Source of the DNA: an uncultured Clostridia bacterium
GTDB lineage: Bacteria > Bacillota > Clostridia > Christensenellales > Borkfalkiaceae
Direction of reading: 5' to 3'
NCBI GenBank assembly: GCA_944359365.1
Contig: CALVST010000014.1
Span: forward strand, 1 to 45,023
DNA length: 45,023 nucleotides
Part shown: positions 1 through 45,023 of the stretch, piece by piece
Layout of the letters: each line of letters opens with the position of its first letter
Numbering within the stretch: the stretch's first letter is position 1
Notes under the pieces: generated by a model
What the model was told of the DNA's origin: nothing
The model's database searches: none
The model's input: the letters and a program-made list of their open reading frames with translations, nothing else
Translations under genes and position numbers: made by a program

Positions 1-117
1 CCTTAAAAAGCGGCAAAGAGGAAAAATCCGAACGCAGAGCCGTTTGCAAAACGGCGAACGTTGGGGTTTTCCTAAAACTCACGACAAATTGCGTGCCTTT
101 GCGCGCAATTTGTGTGA
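1..117 (-). repeat. Structured intergenic repeat, copy a (truncated by window edge)
   Basis: On the minus strand the copy begins with hairpin P1 (117 down to 79). TCAC pairs with GTGA, a single unpaired C lies just before GTGA, and the variable arms AAATTGCG and CGCAATTT are perfectly complementary. It is followed by the family linker GTTTTAG, a second stem (AGGAAAA-type arms at 19-29 and 64-74), and the beginning of the third stem with the conserved loop start TTTTTAAGG at the window edge. It lies upstream of the rpsB promoter in the opposite orientation to rpsB. The remainder is outside the window. Confidence 0.8.
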
Positions 118-134
118 ACACGAACTGTTTTCGC

Positions 135-7185: not shown

Positions 7186-7194
7186 AAAAGATGT

Positions 7195-7385
7195 TCACAC
7201 ATTTTGTTTTGTGCTGACAAAACAAAATGTCGTGAGTTTGAGGGCGCTGCCCTCTGCGGCGCACTTTTTGAAGGGCACGCCATAAGATGTGCGCCGCATT
7301 CACCCGCCGAGGTCGCAGGAATGCGACAAATTGAGTGCGCTTATTGAAAAGCGCGGTTTTCAAACGCGCCGTAAAATATTTTAGT
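7195..7385 (+). repeat. Structured intergenic repeat, copy b
   Basis: P1 is 7195-7235: 17 pairs of TCACAC plus ATTTTGTTTTG with their complement, a single bulged C before GTGA, and loop TGCTGA. The linker GTTTGA follows. P2 is GAGGGC-GCT-GCCCTC at 7240-7254. P3 is TGCGGCGCAC (7255-7264) with GTGCGCCGCA (7289-7298), and its 24-base loop opens TTTTTGAAGGGCACGC. P4 is GTCGCA-GGAA-TGCGAC at 7312-7327, followed by CAAATTGAGTG. P6 is TTGAAAA-GCGCGG-TTTTCAA at 7344-7363, followed by an AT-rich tail. The next copy starts directly at 7386. Confidence 0.85.
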
Positions 7386-7590
7386 TCACGAAAACCTCGG
7401 CGAGCTGACGCCTGCGGTTTTCCGTGATTTGAGAGGAAACCCGAGCGGTTTTCCCCTCTTTGCGGCACTTTTTAAGGGCACGCAAAATATATAGTGCCGC
7501 AAATTCACCCTTTCCGTGAGCCAAAGCATTGGCAAATTGAGTGAACGGGCAAAAAGTGTCATTTTTGCCCGTTCGAAAAGTATTTGAATT
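7386..7590 (+). repeat. Structured intergenic repeat, copy c
   Basis: P1 is 7386-7427, with arms TCACGAAAACC and GGTTTTCCGTGA, one extra C, and an apical GGCG-AGCTGA-CGCC. P2 is at about 7431-7458. P3 is TTTGCGGCAC (7459-7468) with GTGCCGCAAA (7494-7503) around a loop opening TTTTTAAGGGCACGC. P5 is TTCAC (7504-7508) with GTGAA (7541-7545) enclosing P4, GCCAA-AGCA-TTGGC (7520-7533), then CAAATTGAG. P6 has a perfect 13-bp stem (7543-7555 with 7562-7574) around GTGTCA. It is in direct tandem with copy b. Confidence 0.85.
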
Positions 7591-7637
7591 TACTCGTTTC
7601 TGAGCTGACGCCTGCGATTTTCCGTGAGTTTGAGGGA
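7591..7637 (+). repeat. Structured intergenic repeat, degenerate copy d
   Basis: The segment GAGCTGACGCCTGCG followed by TTTTCCGTGAGTTTGAGG matches the 3' half of P1 and the linker of copies b and c. The 5' arm has lost complementarity, and the rest of the unit is absent, ending at the terminator of the converging gene. It looks like a decayed third tandem copy. Confidence 0.65.
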
Positions 7638-7651
7638 GAAAAAAGATATAA

Positions 7652-18908: not shown

Positions 18909-20624
18909 ATGAAGGCATTAAAAAAGAGCATCATCGTATGCGGGCTTTCGCTCGTGCTGTGCGTCGGTCTTTTGATGGGCACCACGTTCGCATGGTTTAC
19001 CGACACGGTAACCAACTCCGGCAACATCATTCAGGCAGGCACCCTCGAACTCAAAGCGTACGCTTACGACACGGTAGACGCCGCTGCCGAAGGCACGACG
19101 AGCGTTACGGTAGACGATCTCGGCACTTATATATTCGAACCGAAATCCGAAGCGCAGGACCTCGACGAAGACAATTCGCCGATCATCGGCAGTGCGCTTG
19201 CCGAGCCGGGTGCAACGGGCGAACCCGTACTTTTGGAACTTGAAAACGCGGGCAGCCTGCCCTTGCAGTTCAAGCTCGAATTTATCGTCGACGCGGGCGG
19301 CTTGGAAGGCGCGCTTTGGTTCGACTTTATCGGCGTCGATGCAAGCGGCAACGTTTCCGGGCAGTACACGCAGCGCCGGATGGACCAGCTGAATACCGTC
19401 GCGGGGCAGTTGGAAAACACGAGCGCCTCTTACCTCGATCCGAATGAGTCCGTGCGCTATATGTTCGTTTACGGTATGTATGGTACGGCGGGCAACGAAT
19501 ATCAGGGCGAAACGTTCAGCGTGAGCGTTGTCGTCAGCGCGAAGCAGACGGTAGACGATGCCGAGTACGAAACGTATACCACAGTTGCAAACTCTGCCGC
19601 GCTTACCGAGCAAGTACGCGAGGGCGGGTATATCCTTTTGACGGACGACATGGCGCTTGACCTCACTTCCGACGAAGGCAGCAGCGCCGTTACGAAGGAT
19701 ACTACCATCAACCTGAACGGCAAAACGCTGACGAATGAAATGGCTTACACTTTGGTAGCGGCGGAAGGCGCAACGCTGACCATTGAAAACGGCACGCTTG
19801 ATTTTTCCGAATATATTGAAGGCAAAAATTTGGCAACCAGTGATATGGGCATAAGAGAGGGAGCTACCCTCGTATTGCGCAATTGTACGATCACGAGCGT
19901 ACAGGCGGTTGCGTGTATCGGCAGTGAAGATCCGTCAGTTGATTCGGAAAATTCAAAGCTCATTGTTGAAAATTGCACAATCAATACGACAAACAGCACT
20001 GCAATATCCACAAACGCGAAGACCAATTATTATTGCGAAATAGAGATCAGAAATACCGATATTTATTGCGGTCCGATTGACGGGGTTCCTGTATATAGCG
20101 GTTTATCCAGAGCAACAGACAATTGCCCTGTATTTATGAATGTAAAAGGCAAACTGACGATGGATAACTGTAAGATAACGGGGCAGCGTCAGGGAGTTAT
20201 GGTGCGCAGCGGAACGGCAATCATCTCCGATACCTCGATAGTTTTAATGGGTACATATACAGGTAGCGAGAATGGGTACGATAACGATAAATATTGGAAT
20301 GCAGCGTGGGGCGGCGGCAATAATGTACCTATGGCGGCGCTTGTAGTGGGCGACTATTCGAGCTCTTACCCGAACAATGCTGACGTTACGTTGAACAATT
20401 GCATGATAGAATCGAAGAATGCCACCTTGCCTGCTGTTTATATTTGGGGCGACGGTGGGTATTCCGCAACGCTTACATATGACAGCACAACGCAAATAGT
20501 CGGAACGATTGGCATACGCGGCGGTGTTTCGAACGACGGAACTAATTTAGTAAATAACGGCACGACCAGTAAACAGATAGAAGATGTTATTACAGGACCT
20601 ACAACGCCTAATCCGCTGAATTGA
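18909..20624 (+). CDS. TasA-like fibre protein fused to a beta-helix domain
   Basis: The 571-residue protein begins with a signal peptide and TTFAWFTDTVTNSGNIIQAG, the TasA/camelysin entry motif. The first ~215 residues form that domain (GALWFDFIGVD and FVYGMYGTAGNEYQG are shared with the next gene). From about residue 225 the protein is a repetitive strand-turn pattern (INLNGKTLTNE, TLTIENGTLDFSE, LVLRNCTITSV, LIVENCTINTT) typical of a right-handed parallel beta-helix. It is probably secreted and cut by the SipW at the end of the cluster. The beta-helix half is visibly more AT-rich than the N-terminal half, suggesting separate origins. Confidence 0.8.
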   Translation: MKALKKSIIVCGLSLVLCVGLLMGTTFAWFTDTVTNSGNIIQAGTLELKAYAYDTVDAAAEGTTSVTVDDLGTYIFEPKSEAQDLDEDNSPIIGSALAEPGATGEPVLLELENAGSLPLQFKLEFIVDAGGLEGALWFDFIGVDASGNVSGQYTQRRMDQLNTVAGQLENTSASYLDPNESVRYMFVYGMYGTAGNEYQGETFSVSVVVSAKQTVDDAEYETYTTVANSAALTEQVREGGYILLTDDMALDLTSDEGSSAVTKDTTINLNGKTLTNEMAYTLVAAEGATLTIENGTLDFSEYIEGKNLATSDMGIREGATLVLRNCTITSVQAVACIGSEDPSVDSENSKLIVENCTINTTNSTAISTNAKTNYYCEIEIRNTDIYCGPIDGVPVYSGLSRATDNCPVFMNVKGKLTMDNCKITGQRQGVMVRSGTAIISDTSIVLMGTYTGSENGYDNDKYWNAAWGGGNNVPMAALVVGDYSSSYPNNADVTLNNCMIESKNATLPAVYIWGDGGYSATLTYDSTTQIVGTIGIRGGVSNDGTNLVNNGTTSKQIEDVITGPTTPNPLN

Positions 20625-20730: not shown

Positions 20731-22914
20731 ATGAAAGGATTCAAAAGGAGCATTCTGGCTTGCGGCGCGGCGCTGGCGCTCAGCGGGGCCGCGCTTGTGG
20801 GTACCACGTTTGCTTGGTTTACCGATTCGGTCACAAATTCGGGAAACAAAATACAGGCGGGAACGCTGAAAATAAATGCTTTCGCTTTTGACACAGGCAC
20901 GGGCGGCATTACGGTAAACGATGTCGGCGGCAAAAACTACACCTTTGAGGCGGAAGGGGAAGACCTTCGCGCTTCCGCCGCGCCTATCGTAAACGAAACA
21001 AATTTTGCCCCCGGCGATGTAAATGCAAAGCTGTTGGAAGTGACCAACGCGGGCAGCATCGATGCGATGGTAAAGCTGAATTTTACCGTAGAAGGTACGC
21101 TTACCGACGCGCTTTGGTTCGACTTCGTGCGGATAGACGAATAGAACGCGGTAACGGGCACGTTCGGCGAAAAGCCGATGAGTGAACTTGTATCGCTTTC
21201 CGAGACGCAACTGCCGCTCCCTGCGGCGCAAGAGGGCACGAGCAGGGTGCGCTTTGTGCTCGTTTACGGCATGAACGAGGAAGCGGGCAACGAGTATCAG
21301 GGCGGCACCTTTACGGCAGACGTCGCCATTCTCGCCCGTCAAAATGTAAACGGCGCGCAGTATCCTGAAATTGTTACAGATCAGGCAGAGCTTGCCCAAG
21401 CGTTTACCCAAGGCGGGAATATCGTTCTTGGCGCCGATGTGCCGACGTTTGTAGAAGATTCCCATGAAGTGATAGAGGGAGTACCCGGGTTTACGGTTTC
21501 GAATGTGATTACAAATTATACACAGCTCGACCTTGCCGGAAAAACAATCAGCTATACCGAGGCTATGCAGGCATATTATGATACATACCTGTTGATGTTC
21601 GAAGTAGCCGGCGGTACGTTGGAAATCAACGGCGACGGCGTTGTTACAATGGAAGCGGGAAATAACGGAGGTTATGCATTCAATGTGCTTGACGGCGGTA
21701 CGCTTATCATCAACGGCGGCGAATATTACGGTGCTGTAACCGCAATACAAGTACAGAAAGGAACTGCAATCATCAACGGCGGATTTTTTGACGTTTCACC
21801 TACATATAAAAGCAGGGATGATTATGCAAGCAATGTCCGCTATTTGATCAACTGCGTTGACGCTAGCTATAAAAATGGTACGGCAGTTATTGAGATACGC
21901 GGCGGCACGTTCGTGAATTATGATCCGAGCAACAATGCGGCGGAAGGAGAAGGCACAAATTTCGTTGCCGATGGATATACGGTCATTTCCGAAAAGCAGG
22001 CAAACGGCGATACTTGGTACACCGTAGTGCCGATCGAAGAGTCTGCGGATACGGCTCAGTCGTTTGCAGAAGCGTTGAAAGGGCTGAACGTTGCGGGCGA
22101 TGTGGAAAAAATCATAACGATAGAAAACAATATCGAGGACATTACGGGTATTCAAACGGCGGCAGGCAACACGCTTGAAGTTAACTTCGGCGGGCACAGC
22201 GTTTCCGTAGGGACGACGGTCGGTTCGGAGGGTACCGTAACGAACGGTATGCAGCTTTTAGAAGGTTCTAAAGTCACCCTTCGCAACGGCACATACAGAC
22301 CGGGCGATGATAAAGTTTTTATACTTGTGCAAAACTATTGCGATTTGCTTTTAGATAATTTTACGTTGGATGTGCGTGGTTTTGAAAACTGTTATGCGCT
22401 GTCCAATAATTGCAGTTATACAGTTTTAACGGGAAATACAAATATCATTACAGGCGATAACAATCGGTTTGCTTTGGATACTTGCAATTTCGCCTCATAT
22501 ACTTTGCCTACGGTCGAGCTTGACGAAAATATGACGGGAACGGTGGAGGGTATCGTCTATGTGGACGGCGGGTATCTGATCGTTAAAAACGGTACGATTG
22601 TCGGCACAATCAAGTATACAAAACAAGGCGGAAGCCTTGTCATCAGCGGCGGAACCGTAAACGGCAATATCGAAATCGCCGAACAGGTTTTTGGGGAACA
22701 AGACGAAATAAAAGGCGTTTCCCGCAGTATCGTAATCTCCGGCGGAACGATTAACGGAAGAATCATAGACGAATCTGCCGGTCAAGTTACCATAACGGTT
22801 ACAGGCGGTACGTTTATCAACTTCAATCCTACAAATTATATTCAAGCAGGCTACAAAGTCATTTCCCAAGAACAGACGAACGGCGATATTTGGTACACCG
22901 TAGTACCCGAATAA
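20731..22914 (+). pseudogene. TasA-like/beta-helix gene interrupted by one in-frame amber codon
   Basis: Codons 1-137 encode a signal peptide, TTFAWFTDSVTNSGNKIQAG and a TasA-like domain up to ALWFDFVRIDE. A TAG follows at 21142-21144, and the same frame then continues open for 589 more codons to a TAA at 22912-22914. The downstream part has RVRFVLVYGMNEEAGNEYQG, closely matching the paralogue at 18909, then a long beta-helix region with repeats such as TLIINGGEYYG and LVISGGTVNGN. No frame change is needed. The ATG at 21178 has no ribosome-binding site, so independent translation of the second part is doubtful. A nonsense mutation, phase-like switching, suppression or sequence error are all possible. 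Confidence 0.8.
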
Positions 22915-36530: not shown

Positions 36531-36554
36531 AAAAAGCCTTTCACGAAAGAGAGT

Positions 36555-36786
36555 TCACGCGTTTCTCGTGCAAAGGCACTGCGAAACGCCGTGATTTTGA
36601 GAGACAACCGCCGTTCGCCGACGCGCAGGTCGACTCTGCGGCGTTTTTCTCTCTGCGAAAATATTTAAGGGCTTTCTTATTATAGCAATTTTCGCATTCA
36701 CTCTTTTTCGGCAAGCCGCGTGTCGCGGCAAATCGGGGGCTTATTCCGAAAAGTGCGATTTTCGGAAACGCAAGTAATTATTTAAA
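36555..36786 (+). repeat. Structured intergenic repeat, copy e
   Basis: P1 is 36555-36594 (TCACG plus CGTTTC with GAAACG and CCGTGA, one bulged C; apical GTGC-AAAG-GCAC). P2 has GAGAGA (36599-36604) with TCTCTC (36648-36653). P3 is TGCGAAAAT (36654-36662) with ATTTTCGCA (36688-36696) around a loop with ATTTAAGGGC. P4 is GCCGCG-TGT-CGCGGC (36715-36729) followed by AAAT. P6 is TTCCGAAAA-GTGCGA-TTTTCGGAA (36744-36767). It runs head-on into copy f and begins 25 bases from the mnmG start codon. Confidence 0.85.
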
Positions 36787-37014
36787 AATTTATTTGCGCA
36801 AGGGAAATCGCAATTTTCCGCAGCGCACCCCTATTTGGCAACGCTTTGCCTTACGGGAAGAGGGTGAATTTGCGCCCCTTGCATACTATGTGTGCCCCTA
36901 AAAGGGCGCAAAGAGCGGAGAAACCGTTGTCGAGCCGACAGTATGTCGGCGAGCAATGGTGTCGCCCTCAAATCACGGAAAACCGCAGGCGTCAGCTCGC
37001 CGAGGTTTTCGTGA
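36787..37014 (-). repeat. Structured intergenic repeat, copy f
   Basis: On the minus strand P1 (37014-36973) is identical in sequence to that of copy c. P3 is TTTGCGCCC with GGGCGCAAA (36912-36904 and 36877-36869), with loop TTTTAGGGGCAC. P4 is GGCAA with TTGCC (36850-36837), followed by CAAATAGGGGTG, which pairs back to CACCCT upstream. P6 is GGAAA with TTTCC around a TTGCGA-type loop (36819-36803). The copy starts 10 bases after the dnaA stop codon, in the sense of dnaA. Confidence 0.85.
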
Positions 37015-37023
37015 ACTCCCTTC

Positions 37024-42629: not shown

Positions 42630-42706
42630 TCTCACTTTTGTAAGAAAAATGATTGAATTCTCACTATCGTAAGATGTATAATATCATAAATCTTACTATT
42701 GTAAGA
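42630..42706. promoter_or_regulatory. Three operators and overlapping divergent promoters of the XRE/TM2 locus
   Basis: Three 16-base dyads share TCTyACT..yGTAAGA: TCTCACTTTTGTAAGA (42630-42645), TCTCACTATCGTAAGA (42659-42674) and the perfect dyad TCTTACTATTGTAAGA (42691-42706), spaced 29 and 32 bases centre to centre. The rightward promoter is TTGAAT (42653-42658), 18 bases, TATAAT (42677-42682). The leftward one is TTACAA (42704-42699), 17 bases, TTATAC (42681-42676). The two share one -10 region, and the sites cover both -35 elements. Confidence 0.8.
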
Positions 42707-42733
42707 AAAATATTCAGAGGGAGAGAATTCGGA

Positions 42734-43593: not shown

Positions 43594-44976
43594 ATGAAAC
43601 GCACTACGGTAAAAGAAATGTACGGCGCGCCGCAGGAGTTCGGCGGCAAAAAAGTGACCGCCGCCGGGTGGGTAAGGACGCTGCGCGACGGAAAAACGTT
43701 CGGATTCATCGAACTGAACGACGGCAGCTGTTTTAAAAACGTGCAGGTCGTTTTCGAGCGCGACAATATCGCCAACTACGACGAAATTGCCCGTCAGAAC
43801 GTGGGGGCGAGCCTCGTCGTAGAGGGCACGCTCGTTTTAACGCCCGAAAACAAACAGCCTTTCGAGATCAAGGCGGAAAAAGTGACCGTTATGGGCGCGT
43901 CTTCGCCCGATTATCCGTTGCAGAAAAAGAGGCATTCCCTCGAATTTTTGCGCGAAATTGCGCATCTGCGCCCGCGCACGAACACCTTCAACGCGGTGTT
44001 CCGCATCCGCAGCGAGGCGGCGTTCGCCATCCATAAATTTTTCCATGACAGGGGCTTTATTTATGTGCACACGCCCATCATAACGGGCAGCGACTGCGAG
44101 GGCGCCGGCGCCATGTTCCAGGTCACTACCCTCGAAATGGATAAAATAAAGGGCGATGTCGACTATAAAAAGGACTTTTTCGGCAAAAGGGCGGCTCTCA
44201 CCGTTTCGGGGCAGCTCAACGCGGAAACGTTTGCCATGGCGTTTTCCGATGTGTACACCTTCGGCCCGACCTTCCGCGCCGAGCGTTCCAACACCACCCG
44301 CCACGCGGCGGAGTTCTGGATGATCGAGCCGGAAATGTCTTTCTGCGACCTCGAAGGGGACATGGACGTCGCCGAGGCGATGGTCAAGGCGATCATCCGC
44401 CATGTCATGGAAACCTGCCCTGCTGAGCTTGAATTTTTGAACAGCTTTGTAGACAAGGGGCTGATCGAGCGGCTGAAAAACGTGTCGGAAAACGAGTTCG
44501 TCCGCCTGCCCTATACGAAAGCGATAGAAATTTTGGAAAAGGTCAAAGACAGGTTCGAGTTCCCCGTGTATTGGGGGTGCGACCTGCAGAGCGAGCACGA
44601 GCGGTATCTGACCGAGCAAGTGTATAAAAAGCCGGTATTCCTCACCGATTACCCGAAGGAGATCAAGGCGTTTTATATGCGCCTGAACGACGACGGCAAA
44701 ACGGTGGCGGCGGCAGACCTTTTGGTGCCTGCCATCGGCGAGCTGATCGGCGGTTCGCAGAGGGAAGAGCGGGAAGAGGTACTGCTTGCCCGCATGAAAG
44801 AGATGCATTTAAAACCCGAGGACTACGATTGGTATTTAGACCTGCGCAAATACGGCGGCACGGTGCATTCGGGCTTCGGGCTCGGCTTCGAGCGGATGAT
44901 CATGTACCTTACGGGCATATCCAACATCCGCGACGTTCTGCCCTTCCCGAGAACGGTGGGGAATTTGGAATACTGA
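43594..44976 (+). CDS. asnS: Asparaginyl-tRNA synthetase
   Basis: This class IIb synthetase charges tRNA-Asn. The 460-residue protein has an N-terminal OB-fold anticodon-binding domain ([21 protein letters not shown]), motif 2 region [25 protein letters not shown], and motif 3 [21 protein letters not shown], ending [14 protein letters not shown]. The FWMIEPE and RHAAEF segments distinguish it from AspS. CGGAG lies before the ATG. A repeat copy starts 5 bases after the stop codon. Confidence 0.97.
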
Positions 44977-44981
44977 AAAAC

Positions 44982-45023
44982 TCACACGTTTCTCGGCAAG
45001 CTGATGCCTGCGAAACGTCGTGA
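44982..45023 (+). repeat. Structured intergenic repeat, copy g (truncated by window edge)
   Basis: Only P1 is visible: TCACACGTTTC and GAAACGTCGTGA pair perfectly except for the single bulged C, with apical GGCA-AGCTGA-TGCC. It lies 5 bases after the asnS stop codon in the sense orientation. The window ends at the last base of P1. Confidence 0.8.

What the first reader, a model, noticed from the sequence alone, without database searches (positions are those of the whole stretch)
7195..7637. Dispersed multi-hairpin intergenic repeat whose stems covary between copies
Copies at 1-117(-), 7195(+), 7386(+), 36555(+), 37014(-) and 44982(+) all begin with a hairpin whose stem is TCAC...GTGA with one bulged C next to GTGA. 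The rest of the stem differs between most copies yet stays complementary: AAATTGCG/CGCAATTT, ATTTTGTTTTG with its complement, AAAACC/GGTTTT, CGTTTC/GAAACG, GTTTC/GAAAC. A linker TTTGAG follows. Then comes P2, P3 with variable stems (TGCGGCGCAC, TTTGCGGCAC, TTTGCGCCC, TGCGAAAAT, each with its exact complement) around a conserved loop start TTTTWRRGGGC, P4 followed by CAAAT, and P6 with AAAA-KYGYSR-TTTT. Compensatory change in several stems, with conserved loops, indicates selected structure: a new RNA family, or folded single-stranded DNA recognised by an enzyme as in attC or REP elements.
Basis: seen in the sequence. Interest (0 to 1): 0.92.

Follow-up and report, generated by a model that had tools for sequence, protein, structure and literature searches.

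The report
Shuffled DNA-hairpin repeats of Borkfalkia
Gut bacteria of the Borkfalkia lineage carry dozens of copies of a repeat built of five hairpins between their genes; the hairpin stems change letters freely but in matched pairs, in a way that points to folded DNA rather than RNA, so it looks like a mobile-element family of unknown mover.

Summary
A ~190-235 nt unit of five hairpins (P1-P5) gives 55 model matches in this 1.94 Mb draft genome and occurs in 34 of 36 genus relatives, with divergent kin elsewhere in the family and probably in two other families. P1 and P3 covary strongly: 96.9% of cells paired, score 0.745 against 0.216 shuffled; 20 of 25 pairs significant under a tree-based null. 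P4 and P5 arms also match above arm-swapped controls; P2 was not tested. A bulged base beside GTGA is kept in 144 of 166 units. Pairing in P1 and P3 is almost purely Watson-Crick: G-T fills 0.6% of cells and does not exceed A-C, whereas RNase P RNA of the genus has 11.7% and a 37-fold excess. That argues against an RNA family and for folded DNA. Units stand in arrays +...+ -...-, never head to head among those held. Two sites followed lack a detected unit in most relatives, and modules are shuffled. No target duplication or mover was found. Best reading: a new BOX/BIME-like family of non-autonomous, hairpin-recognised DNA elements.

The parts
1..118 (-). unit cut off by the contig start: P1 (TTCACACAAATTGCG...CGCAATTTGTCGTGA), P2 and the start of P3
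   Evidence: nhmmer model positions 1-113; sequence
7194..7381 (+). complete unit b (P1 to P5), short P2
   Evidence: nhmmer 7195-7381, model 1-225; covariance model hit E 2.0e-45 (this unit is in the model's alignment)
7194..7235 (+). P1 of unit b, bulged C at 7231
   Evidence: sequence; shape counted across units
7255..7298 (+). P3 of unit b (TGCGGCGCAC/GTGCGCCGCA) with conserved loop, followed by TTCAC
   Evidence: sequence; arm-swap control across units
7385..7585 (+). complete unit c (P1 to P5)
   Evidence: nhmmer 7386-7576; covariance model hit 7386-7586, E 8.1e-49 (this unit is in the model's alignment); DNA fold z -7.5
7385..7427 (+). P1 of unit c, bulged C at 7423
   Evidence: sequence
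7459..7503 (+). P3 of unit c (TTTGCGGCAC/GTGCCGCAAA), loop TTTTTAAGGGC
   Evidence: sequence; columns 80-130
7520..7533 (+). P4 of unit c (GCCAA/TTGGC) before AAATTGAGTG
   Evidence: sequence; fold; arm-swap control across units
7543..7574 (+). P5 tail hairpin of unit c
   Evidence: sequence; fold; arm-swap control across units
7590..7640 (+). remnant third unit: decayed P1 and start of P2, before a terminator-like hairpin
   Evidence: nhmmer 7599-7640; G011 keeps a like remnant
36554..36783 (+). left arm of a tail-to-tail dimer between mnmG and dnaA
   Evidence: nhmmer 36555-36783, model 1-225
36784..37015 (-). right arm of the same dimer, abutting the left arm
   Evidence: nhmmer 37014-36784, model 1-225; whole dimer DNA fold z -8.5
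44982..45023 (+). unit cut off by the contig end, 5 nt after the ORF of a class II aminoacyl-tRNA synthetase (D/K/N type)
   Evidence: nhmmer 44982-45023, E 3.3e-5; ORF 43594-44976; Pfam tRNA-synt_2

Best explanation
It is a family of non-coding, non-autonomous interspersed DNA elements. The unit is five hairpins; the commonest multi-unit form is two units joined tail to tail with P1 at both outer ends. Shown: wide copy number, strict polarity of the arrays held, site polymorphism between species, exchange of hairpin alleles between copies, and P1 and P3 stems kept complementary almost only by Watson-Crick pairs, with a fixed bulge and conserved loops. Inferred: the hairpins act as folded single-stranded or cruciform DNA read by shape (bulge, loops, end boxes) and not by stem sequence, by an enzyme supplied in trans or by the host's replication and repair machinery, which spreads whole units and swaps modules. 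Also inferred: copies settle between genes, often just after a stop codon or just before a ribosome-binding site, because other sites are selected against.
For: Copy number and genus-wide spread. Covariation with slid, shuffled and tree-based controls. In P1 and P3, G-T 8 against A-C 12 of 1416 cells and 410 two-sided against 5 one-sided paired changes, while RNase P RNA of 27 genus genomes shows 299 against 8 and 189 against 98; in P5 outside the apex, G-T 23 and A-C 23 of 360. Bulged base on the 3' side in 144 of 166 units (C 125, T 18, A 1), none scored on the 5' side, 10 without, 12 unresolved. Filled and unfilled orthologous sites. Tail-to-tail abutting pairs 40, head-to-head abutting 0; none of 172 arrays has - followed by + (both counts include some overlapping loci). 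Association between hairpin alleles is 0.24-0.49 for the neighbours P2-P3, P3-P4 and P4-P5 and 0.07 for P1-P5.
Against: No mobilising enzyme was identified. No target-site duplication in 28 complete +...- arrays. Y1 transposases do not follow the element. Folded single-stranded or cruciform DNA in the cell is inferred, not shown. Few G-T pairs could also arise if arms are corrected by template switching with no selection for a fold. Some cruder counts lean the other way for P1: G-T 12 against A-C 6 in a partly misregistered count and 7 against 6, though 3 against 5 when re-registered.
Confidence: 0.6

Rival explanations
1. Neutral repeats kept palindromic by mutation alone: template switching at hairpins during replication copies one arm onto the other, so stems look compensated without selection, and recombination between copies shuffles them.
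For: Two-sided changes almost without one-sided intermediates. A same-orientation TTCAC, often the 5' half of a P1, lies within 45 nt outside 16 of 146 outer ends, against 5 in the next 45 nt and 3 of the opposite orientation. Template switching is published as a maker and keeper of hairpins (PMC8794818, search listing and start of abstract).
Against: Arm correction might be expected to erase the one-base bulge, yet it is kept in 144 of 166 units and its base is nearly always C or T; correction confined to the inner stem would spare it. Loops and linkers are conserved although stems are not. It does not by itself explain spread to new sites.
Confidence: 0.22
2. Structured RNA: co-transcribed between genes, the hairpins act on mRNA stability, termination or processing, as proposed for transcribed BOX repeats.
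For: Many copies in this genome lie between genes, right after stops or before ribosome-binding sites, as read by eye; very stable folds.
Against: G-T pairs 0.6% against 11.7% in RNase P RNA of the genus, and no excess over A-C. Dimers present one arm in each orientation to any transcript. No Rfam relation. No unit detected at the two sites followed in 23 of 28 and 26 of 29 relatives.
Confidence: 0.1
3. Host-domesticated chromosomal element, for example a binding or pausing site for a host hairpin-binding protein, kept at chosen places.
For: Persistence of the architecture over several genera, with conserved loops.
Against: Site occupancy is patchy: 5 of 28 relatives at rseP and 3 of 29 at dnaA-mnmG. 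Two of 36 genus relatives show no match.
Confidence: 0.08

Closest known systems
BOX elements of Streptococcus pneumoniae (PMC3049150, passages read)
   Same: Composite interspersed repeats of modules predicted to fold into hairpins, with variable module number
   Different: Different module architecture; here stems are hypervariable yet complementary, units are joined tail to tail, and the family is spread over several genera. Sequence similarity to BOX was not tested.
REP/BIME and TnpA-REP (PMC8266576, passages read)
   Same: Palindromes with a bulge (in the E. coli type), combined as mosaics; TnpA-REP acts on folded single strands
   Different: No GTAG directly before P1, unit several times longer, no co-occurring Y1 transposase
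Integron attC sites (PMC2727003, passages read)
   Same: Hairpins with poor sequence conservation, conserved end boxes and extrahelical bases that are read by structure
   Different: Dispersed over the chromosome; gene cassettes and an integron integrase were not looked for
Stem-loop repeat families of 40 bacterial genomes (PMC2267715, passages read)
   Same: Dispersed stem-loop repeats, many of them intergenic
   Different: A 2008 survey of 40 genomes; the word compensatory does not occur in its text

Membership tests
REP/BIME (TnpA-REP) | GTAG tetranucleotide at the foot of the palindrome | tested here: not met
   By eye, no GTAG directly before P1 in the 28 arrays whose flanks are printed
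REP/BIME (TnpA-REP) | cognate Y1 transposase in the genome | tested here: not met
   28 of 56 genomes have a Y1_Tnp match; G001, G008, G026, G032, G035 have 62-67 element matches and no Y1 match; G002 and G005 have Y1 and no element. Many genomes are incomplete drafts.
REP/BIME (TnpA-REP) | hairpin with a conserved bulge (E. coli type) | tested here: met
   144 of 166 units
MITE | terminal inverted repeats | tested here: met
   P1 in opposite orientation at the two ends of +...- arrays; alleles of the two ends often differ; single units and same-strand arrays lack this
MITE | target-site duplication | tested here: not met
   28 arrays; longest exact repeats close to those of swapped flanks
MITE | ends shared with an autonomous transposon of the host | tested here: inconclusive
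   No recurrent transposase seen near the elements by a crude clustering of reading frames (top 14 clusters); IS ends were not surveyed
integron attC | hairpin with extrahelical base and variable stem | tested here: met
   that it is read by structure is not tested
integron attC | recombined by an IntI-type tyrosine recombinase with gene cassettes | not tested
   Neither recombinases nor cassette genes were searched
RNA family (Rfam type) | match to a curated family | tested here: not met
   0 at gathering score in the window; matches at E up to 1 far below gathering scores
RNA family (Rfam type) | G-U pairs tolerated in covarying stems | tested here: not met
   0.6% of cells in P1 and P3 against 11.7% in RNase P RNA
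BOX element | boxA-boxB-boxC modules | not tested
   No BOX sequences were fetched; comparison by architecture only

The most novel reading that the evidence does not exclude
A recombination system that reads folded DNA hairpins by shape, independent of stem sequence (attC-like P1 with a one-base bulge), and uses them to insert, stack and shuffle hairpin modules across a bacterial family, run by an enzyme class not yet linked to such sites.
Probability: 0.22. Interest if true: 0.88.

Novelty: new variant of a known kind. Interest (0 to 1): 0.64.

Why it matters
It gives a natural set of many hairpins whose stems were rewritten while bulge, loops and polarity stayed, which makes shape-reading of DNA directly testable. 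It also shows that strong covariation alone does not prove an RNA: the G-U to A-C ratio, set beside an RNA control from the same genomes, helps to separate DNA-kept from RNA-kept pairing. Surveys for structured RNAs could take such repeats for RNA families.

Tried and rejected
Rfam at gathering and at lax thresholds: nothing credible. Phage and plasmid records by distant blastn: no match. The viral-contig pattern scan gave 17 stretches, none confirmed by the repeat profile. The Y1 transposase as mover: the only copy in this genome lies by a tRNA-like gene with no element in the 3.3 kb locus, and presence across 56 genomes does not follow the element. Target-site duplication: no signal. A gene recurring beside elements: among the 14 largest clusters only what look like orthologous housekeeping neighbours and translations across the element or the opposite strand. 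A first stem count with regular expressions dropped 34 of 172 units for P1 and was out of register for P3 (P1 30 of 50 distinct stems perfect, P3 30 of 81, both far above shuffles). The first P4 test had a shifted anchor and showed no excess of perfect arms (2 against 1.7); re-anchored, it did. The neighbour-gene classification with a crude ORF caller was too noisy to use, and its count inside ORFs is an artefact of masking.

Full report
Check of the observation. A blastn of 7190-7640 against the genome of the window gives 75 matches at E up to 10, 48 of them at E 0.001 or better, and an iterated profile resolves units of model length 225. The genome is a 1.94 Mb draft in 76 contigs. The genus is Candidatus Borkfalkia or its close kin, because genus relative G011 holds a contig of the same length and with the same profile hits as one of B. 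avistercoris (L040 and L165). The window holds dnaA and mnmG.

Anatomy. A unit is P1 (TTCAC, variable arms, a bulged C or T, GTGA), a TTTGAG linker, P2, P3 with a conserved loop, the spacer TTCACC, P4 before CAAATTGAGTG or variants, and P5 with an AAAA-hexamer-TTTT apex. Six of 42 full-length units in this genome carry an extra insert of roughly 90-130 nt. Two units often abut tail to tail at an ATTATTTAAATAAT-like centre, as at 36554-37015. Over all held loci, neighbouring full-length units abut tail to tail in 40 pairs and in tandem in 11; 24 tandem pairs lie 4-30 nt apart, 18 further tail-to-tail or tandem pairs have other spacings, and one tandem pair overlaps. The 4 head-to-head pairs are all more than 300 nt apart. 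None of 172 arrays, of which 94 are single units, has a minus unit followed by a plus unit. These counts include overlapping loci.

Covariation. Among 78 distinct P1 hairpins found by their end boxes and linker only, with 35 different 5' 7-mers, 63 pair 7/7. For P3, 119 of 158 distinct cases (from 172 units) have a perfect 8-nt arm against a mean of 8.8 and a maximum of 16 when arms are swapped. P4 and P5 also exceed their swapped controls: 76 of 102 against 13.9, and 24 of 60 against 3.3. P2 was not tested. On 57 short-type units (alignment A1), RNAalifold predicts 25 pairs, all in P1 and P3, and 22 show two-sided change; 96.9% of cells pair, with score 0.745 against 0.216 shuffled and 0.08-0.14 slid. 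A simplified R-scape-like null of my own (FastTree, parsimony, 40 simulated alignments) finds 20 of the 25 pairs at E 0.05 or better and 12 other column pairs, some of them next to P1 or in P5. Three of the five non-significant pairs never vary. Recombination between copies means that one tree is only approximate.

RNA or DNA. In the same 57 units, G-T pairs are 8 of 1416 cells and A-C mismatches 12; paired changes are 410 two-sided and 5 one-sided. RNase P RNA from 27 of the 29 genus genomes over its cut-off (the two weakest left out), with a structure predicted in the same way, gives 299 G-U of 2564 cells, 8 A-C, and 189 two-sided against 98 one-sided. Selection on an RNA fold normally passes through G-U (established knowledge). 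Its scarcity, and the balance of G-T and A-C, say that both strands count alike, as in DNA. P5 outside the apex gives 23 against 23, and P1 over 48 distinct stems 3 against 5; cruder P1 counts gave 7 against 6 and 12 against 6 (partly out of register). Against a purely mutational account stands the bulge: 144 of 166 units (6 of 172 could not be anchored) have it on the 3' side, 10 have none, 12 were unresolved, and none was scored on the 5' side.

Mobility and shuffling. Downstream of the M50 peptidase gene (rseP), the profile finds units in 5 of 28 relatives examined, out of 35 with the gene. Between dnaA and mnmG it finds them in 3 of 29 examined, out of 35 with the gene, and a fourth, G035, was seen. 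Some of these loci are cut short by contig ends, and a profile from this genome may miss very divergent units. At both sites this genome and G011 carry different sets of hairpins at the same place, at rseP with the same P5 and following flank. Next to a gene that I take by eye for prs, this genome has a lone P1 where G017 and G034 have a whole unit. Association of hairpin alleles is 0.49 for P4-P5, 0.30 for P2-P3 and 0.24 for P3-P4, but 0.07 for P1-P5, just above the largest of 200 permutations (135 of 172 units parsed). A TTCAC in the same orientation lies within 45 nt outside 16 of 146 outer ends. No target-site duplication was seen in 28 complete arrays.

Spread. The covariance model finds 34 of 36 genus relatives plus this genome (about 65 candidates scored per genome, so high copy numbers are lower bounds). 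In the order-wide sample it finds 21 of 248 genomes: this one, 13 of 17 other genomes of the family, and 7 in other families. Of those 7, G119 (8 matches, best 1.5e-9) and G041 (5 matches, best 5.0e-8) look real and 5 are marginal, two of these from the family of G041. Thirteen divergent copies were read; most keep P5 with an AAAAGCGTGGTTTT-like apex, and those from other families keep TTCACCC or a like spacer, while stems differ.

Mover. Y1_Tnp occurs in 28 of 56 genomes without regard to the element. Other transposases and recombinases were not searched for by family. No recurrent neighbour gene was seen. Phage and plasmid records gave no match.

Conclusion. The finding is real and is a new family of multi-hairpin interspersed DNA repeats. 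It resembles BOX and BIME in kind and attC in that shape outlives sequence, but it fails tests for REP and MITE membership. In print: searches for Borkfalkia (15 of 41 papers listed), for intergenic palindromic interspersed repeats (20 of 46 listed) and for Christensenellales or Borkfalkiaceae repeats (10 of 308 listed) showed no title or abstract start that describes it. The library is open-access only, and PMC8040213 (candidate structured RNAs of human microbiomes; search listing and start of abstract only) might hold such motifs in supplements that I could not read.

Noticed in passing
L200 (G000:C15:27231-30548), 1471-1863 +: The only Y1_Tnp match of the genome: a 130-aa IS200-type reading frame just after a tRNA-like gene, apparently shortened at its C-terminus (tRNA and shortening judged by eye).
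   Followed up: partly
L231 (G026) and L232 (G013), between dnaA and mnmG: Where this genome has the dimer, these two relatives have a lone bulge-less P1-like hairpin (TTCGCACAAATC...GATTTGTGCGA).
   Followed up: partly
42630-42711: Three imperfect copies of a 21-nt motif TCTCACTTTTGTAAGAAAAAT spaced about 30 nt (D19).
   Followed up: no
18976-19072 and 20798-20894: Two 97-nt stretches 74% alike inside neighbouring reading frames, probably paralogous genes (D2).
   Followed up: no
1 and 45023 (contig ends); also starts of C29, C44, C60: Several contig ends of this draft genome fall inside the element, so assembly probably breaks at copies and the true copy number is higher.
   Followed up: no
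L109, L110, L118, L158, L166, L170 (isolate HAN107), L083 (HAN108): A lineage with its own P1 type: a fixed loop CTATTCTGCG and variable complementary stems.
   Followed up: partly
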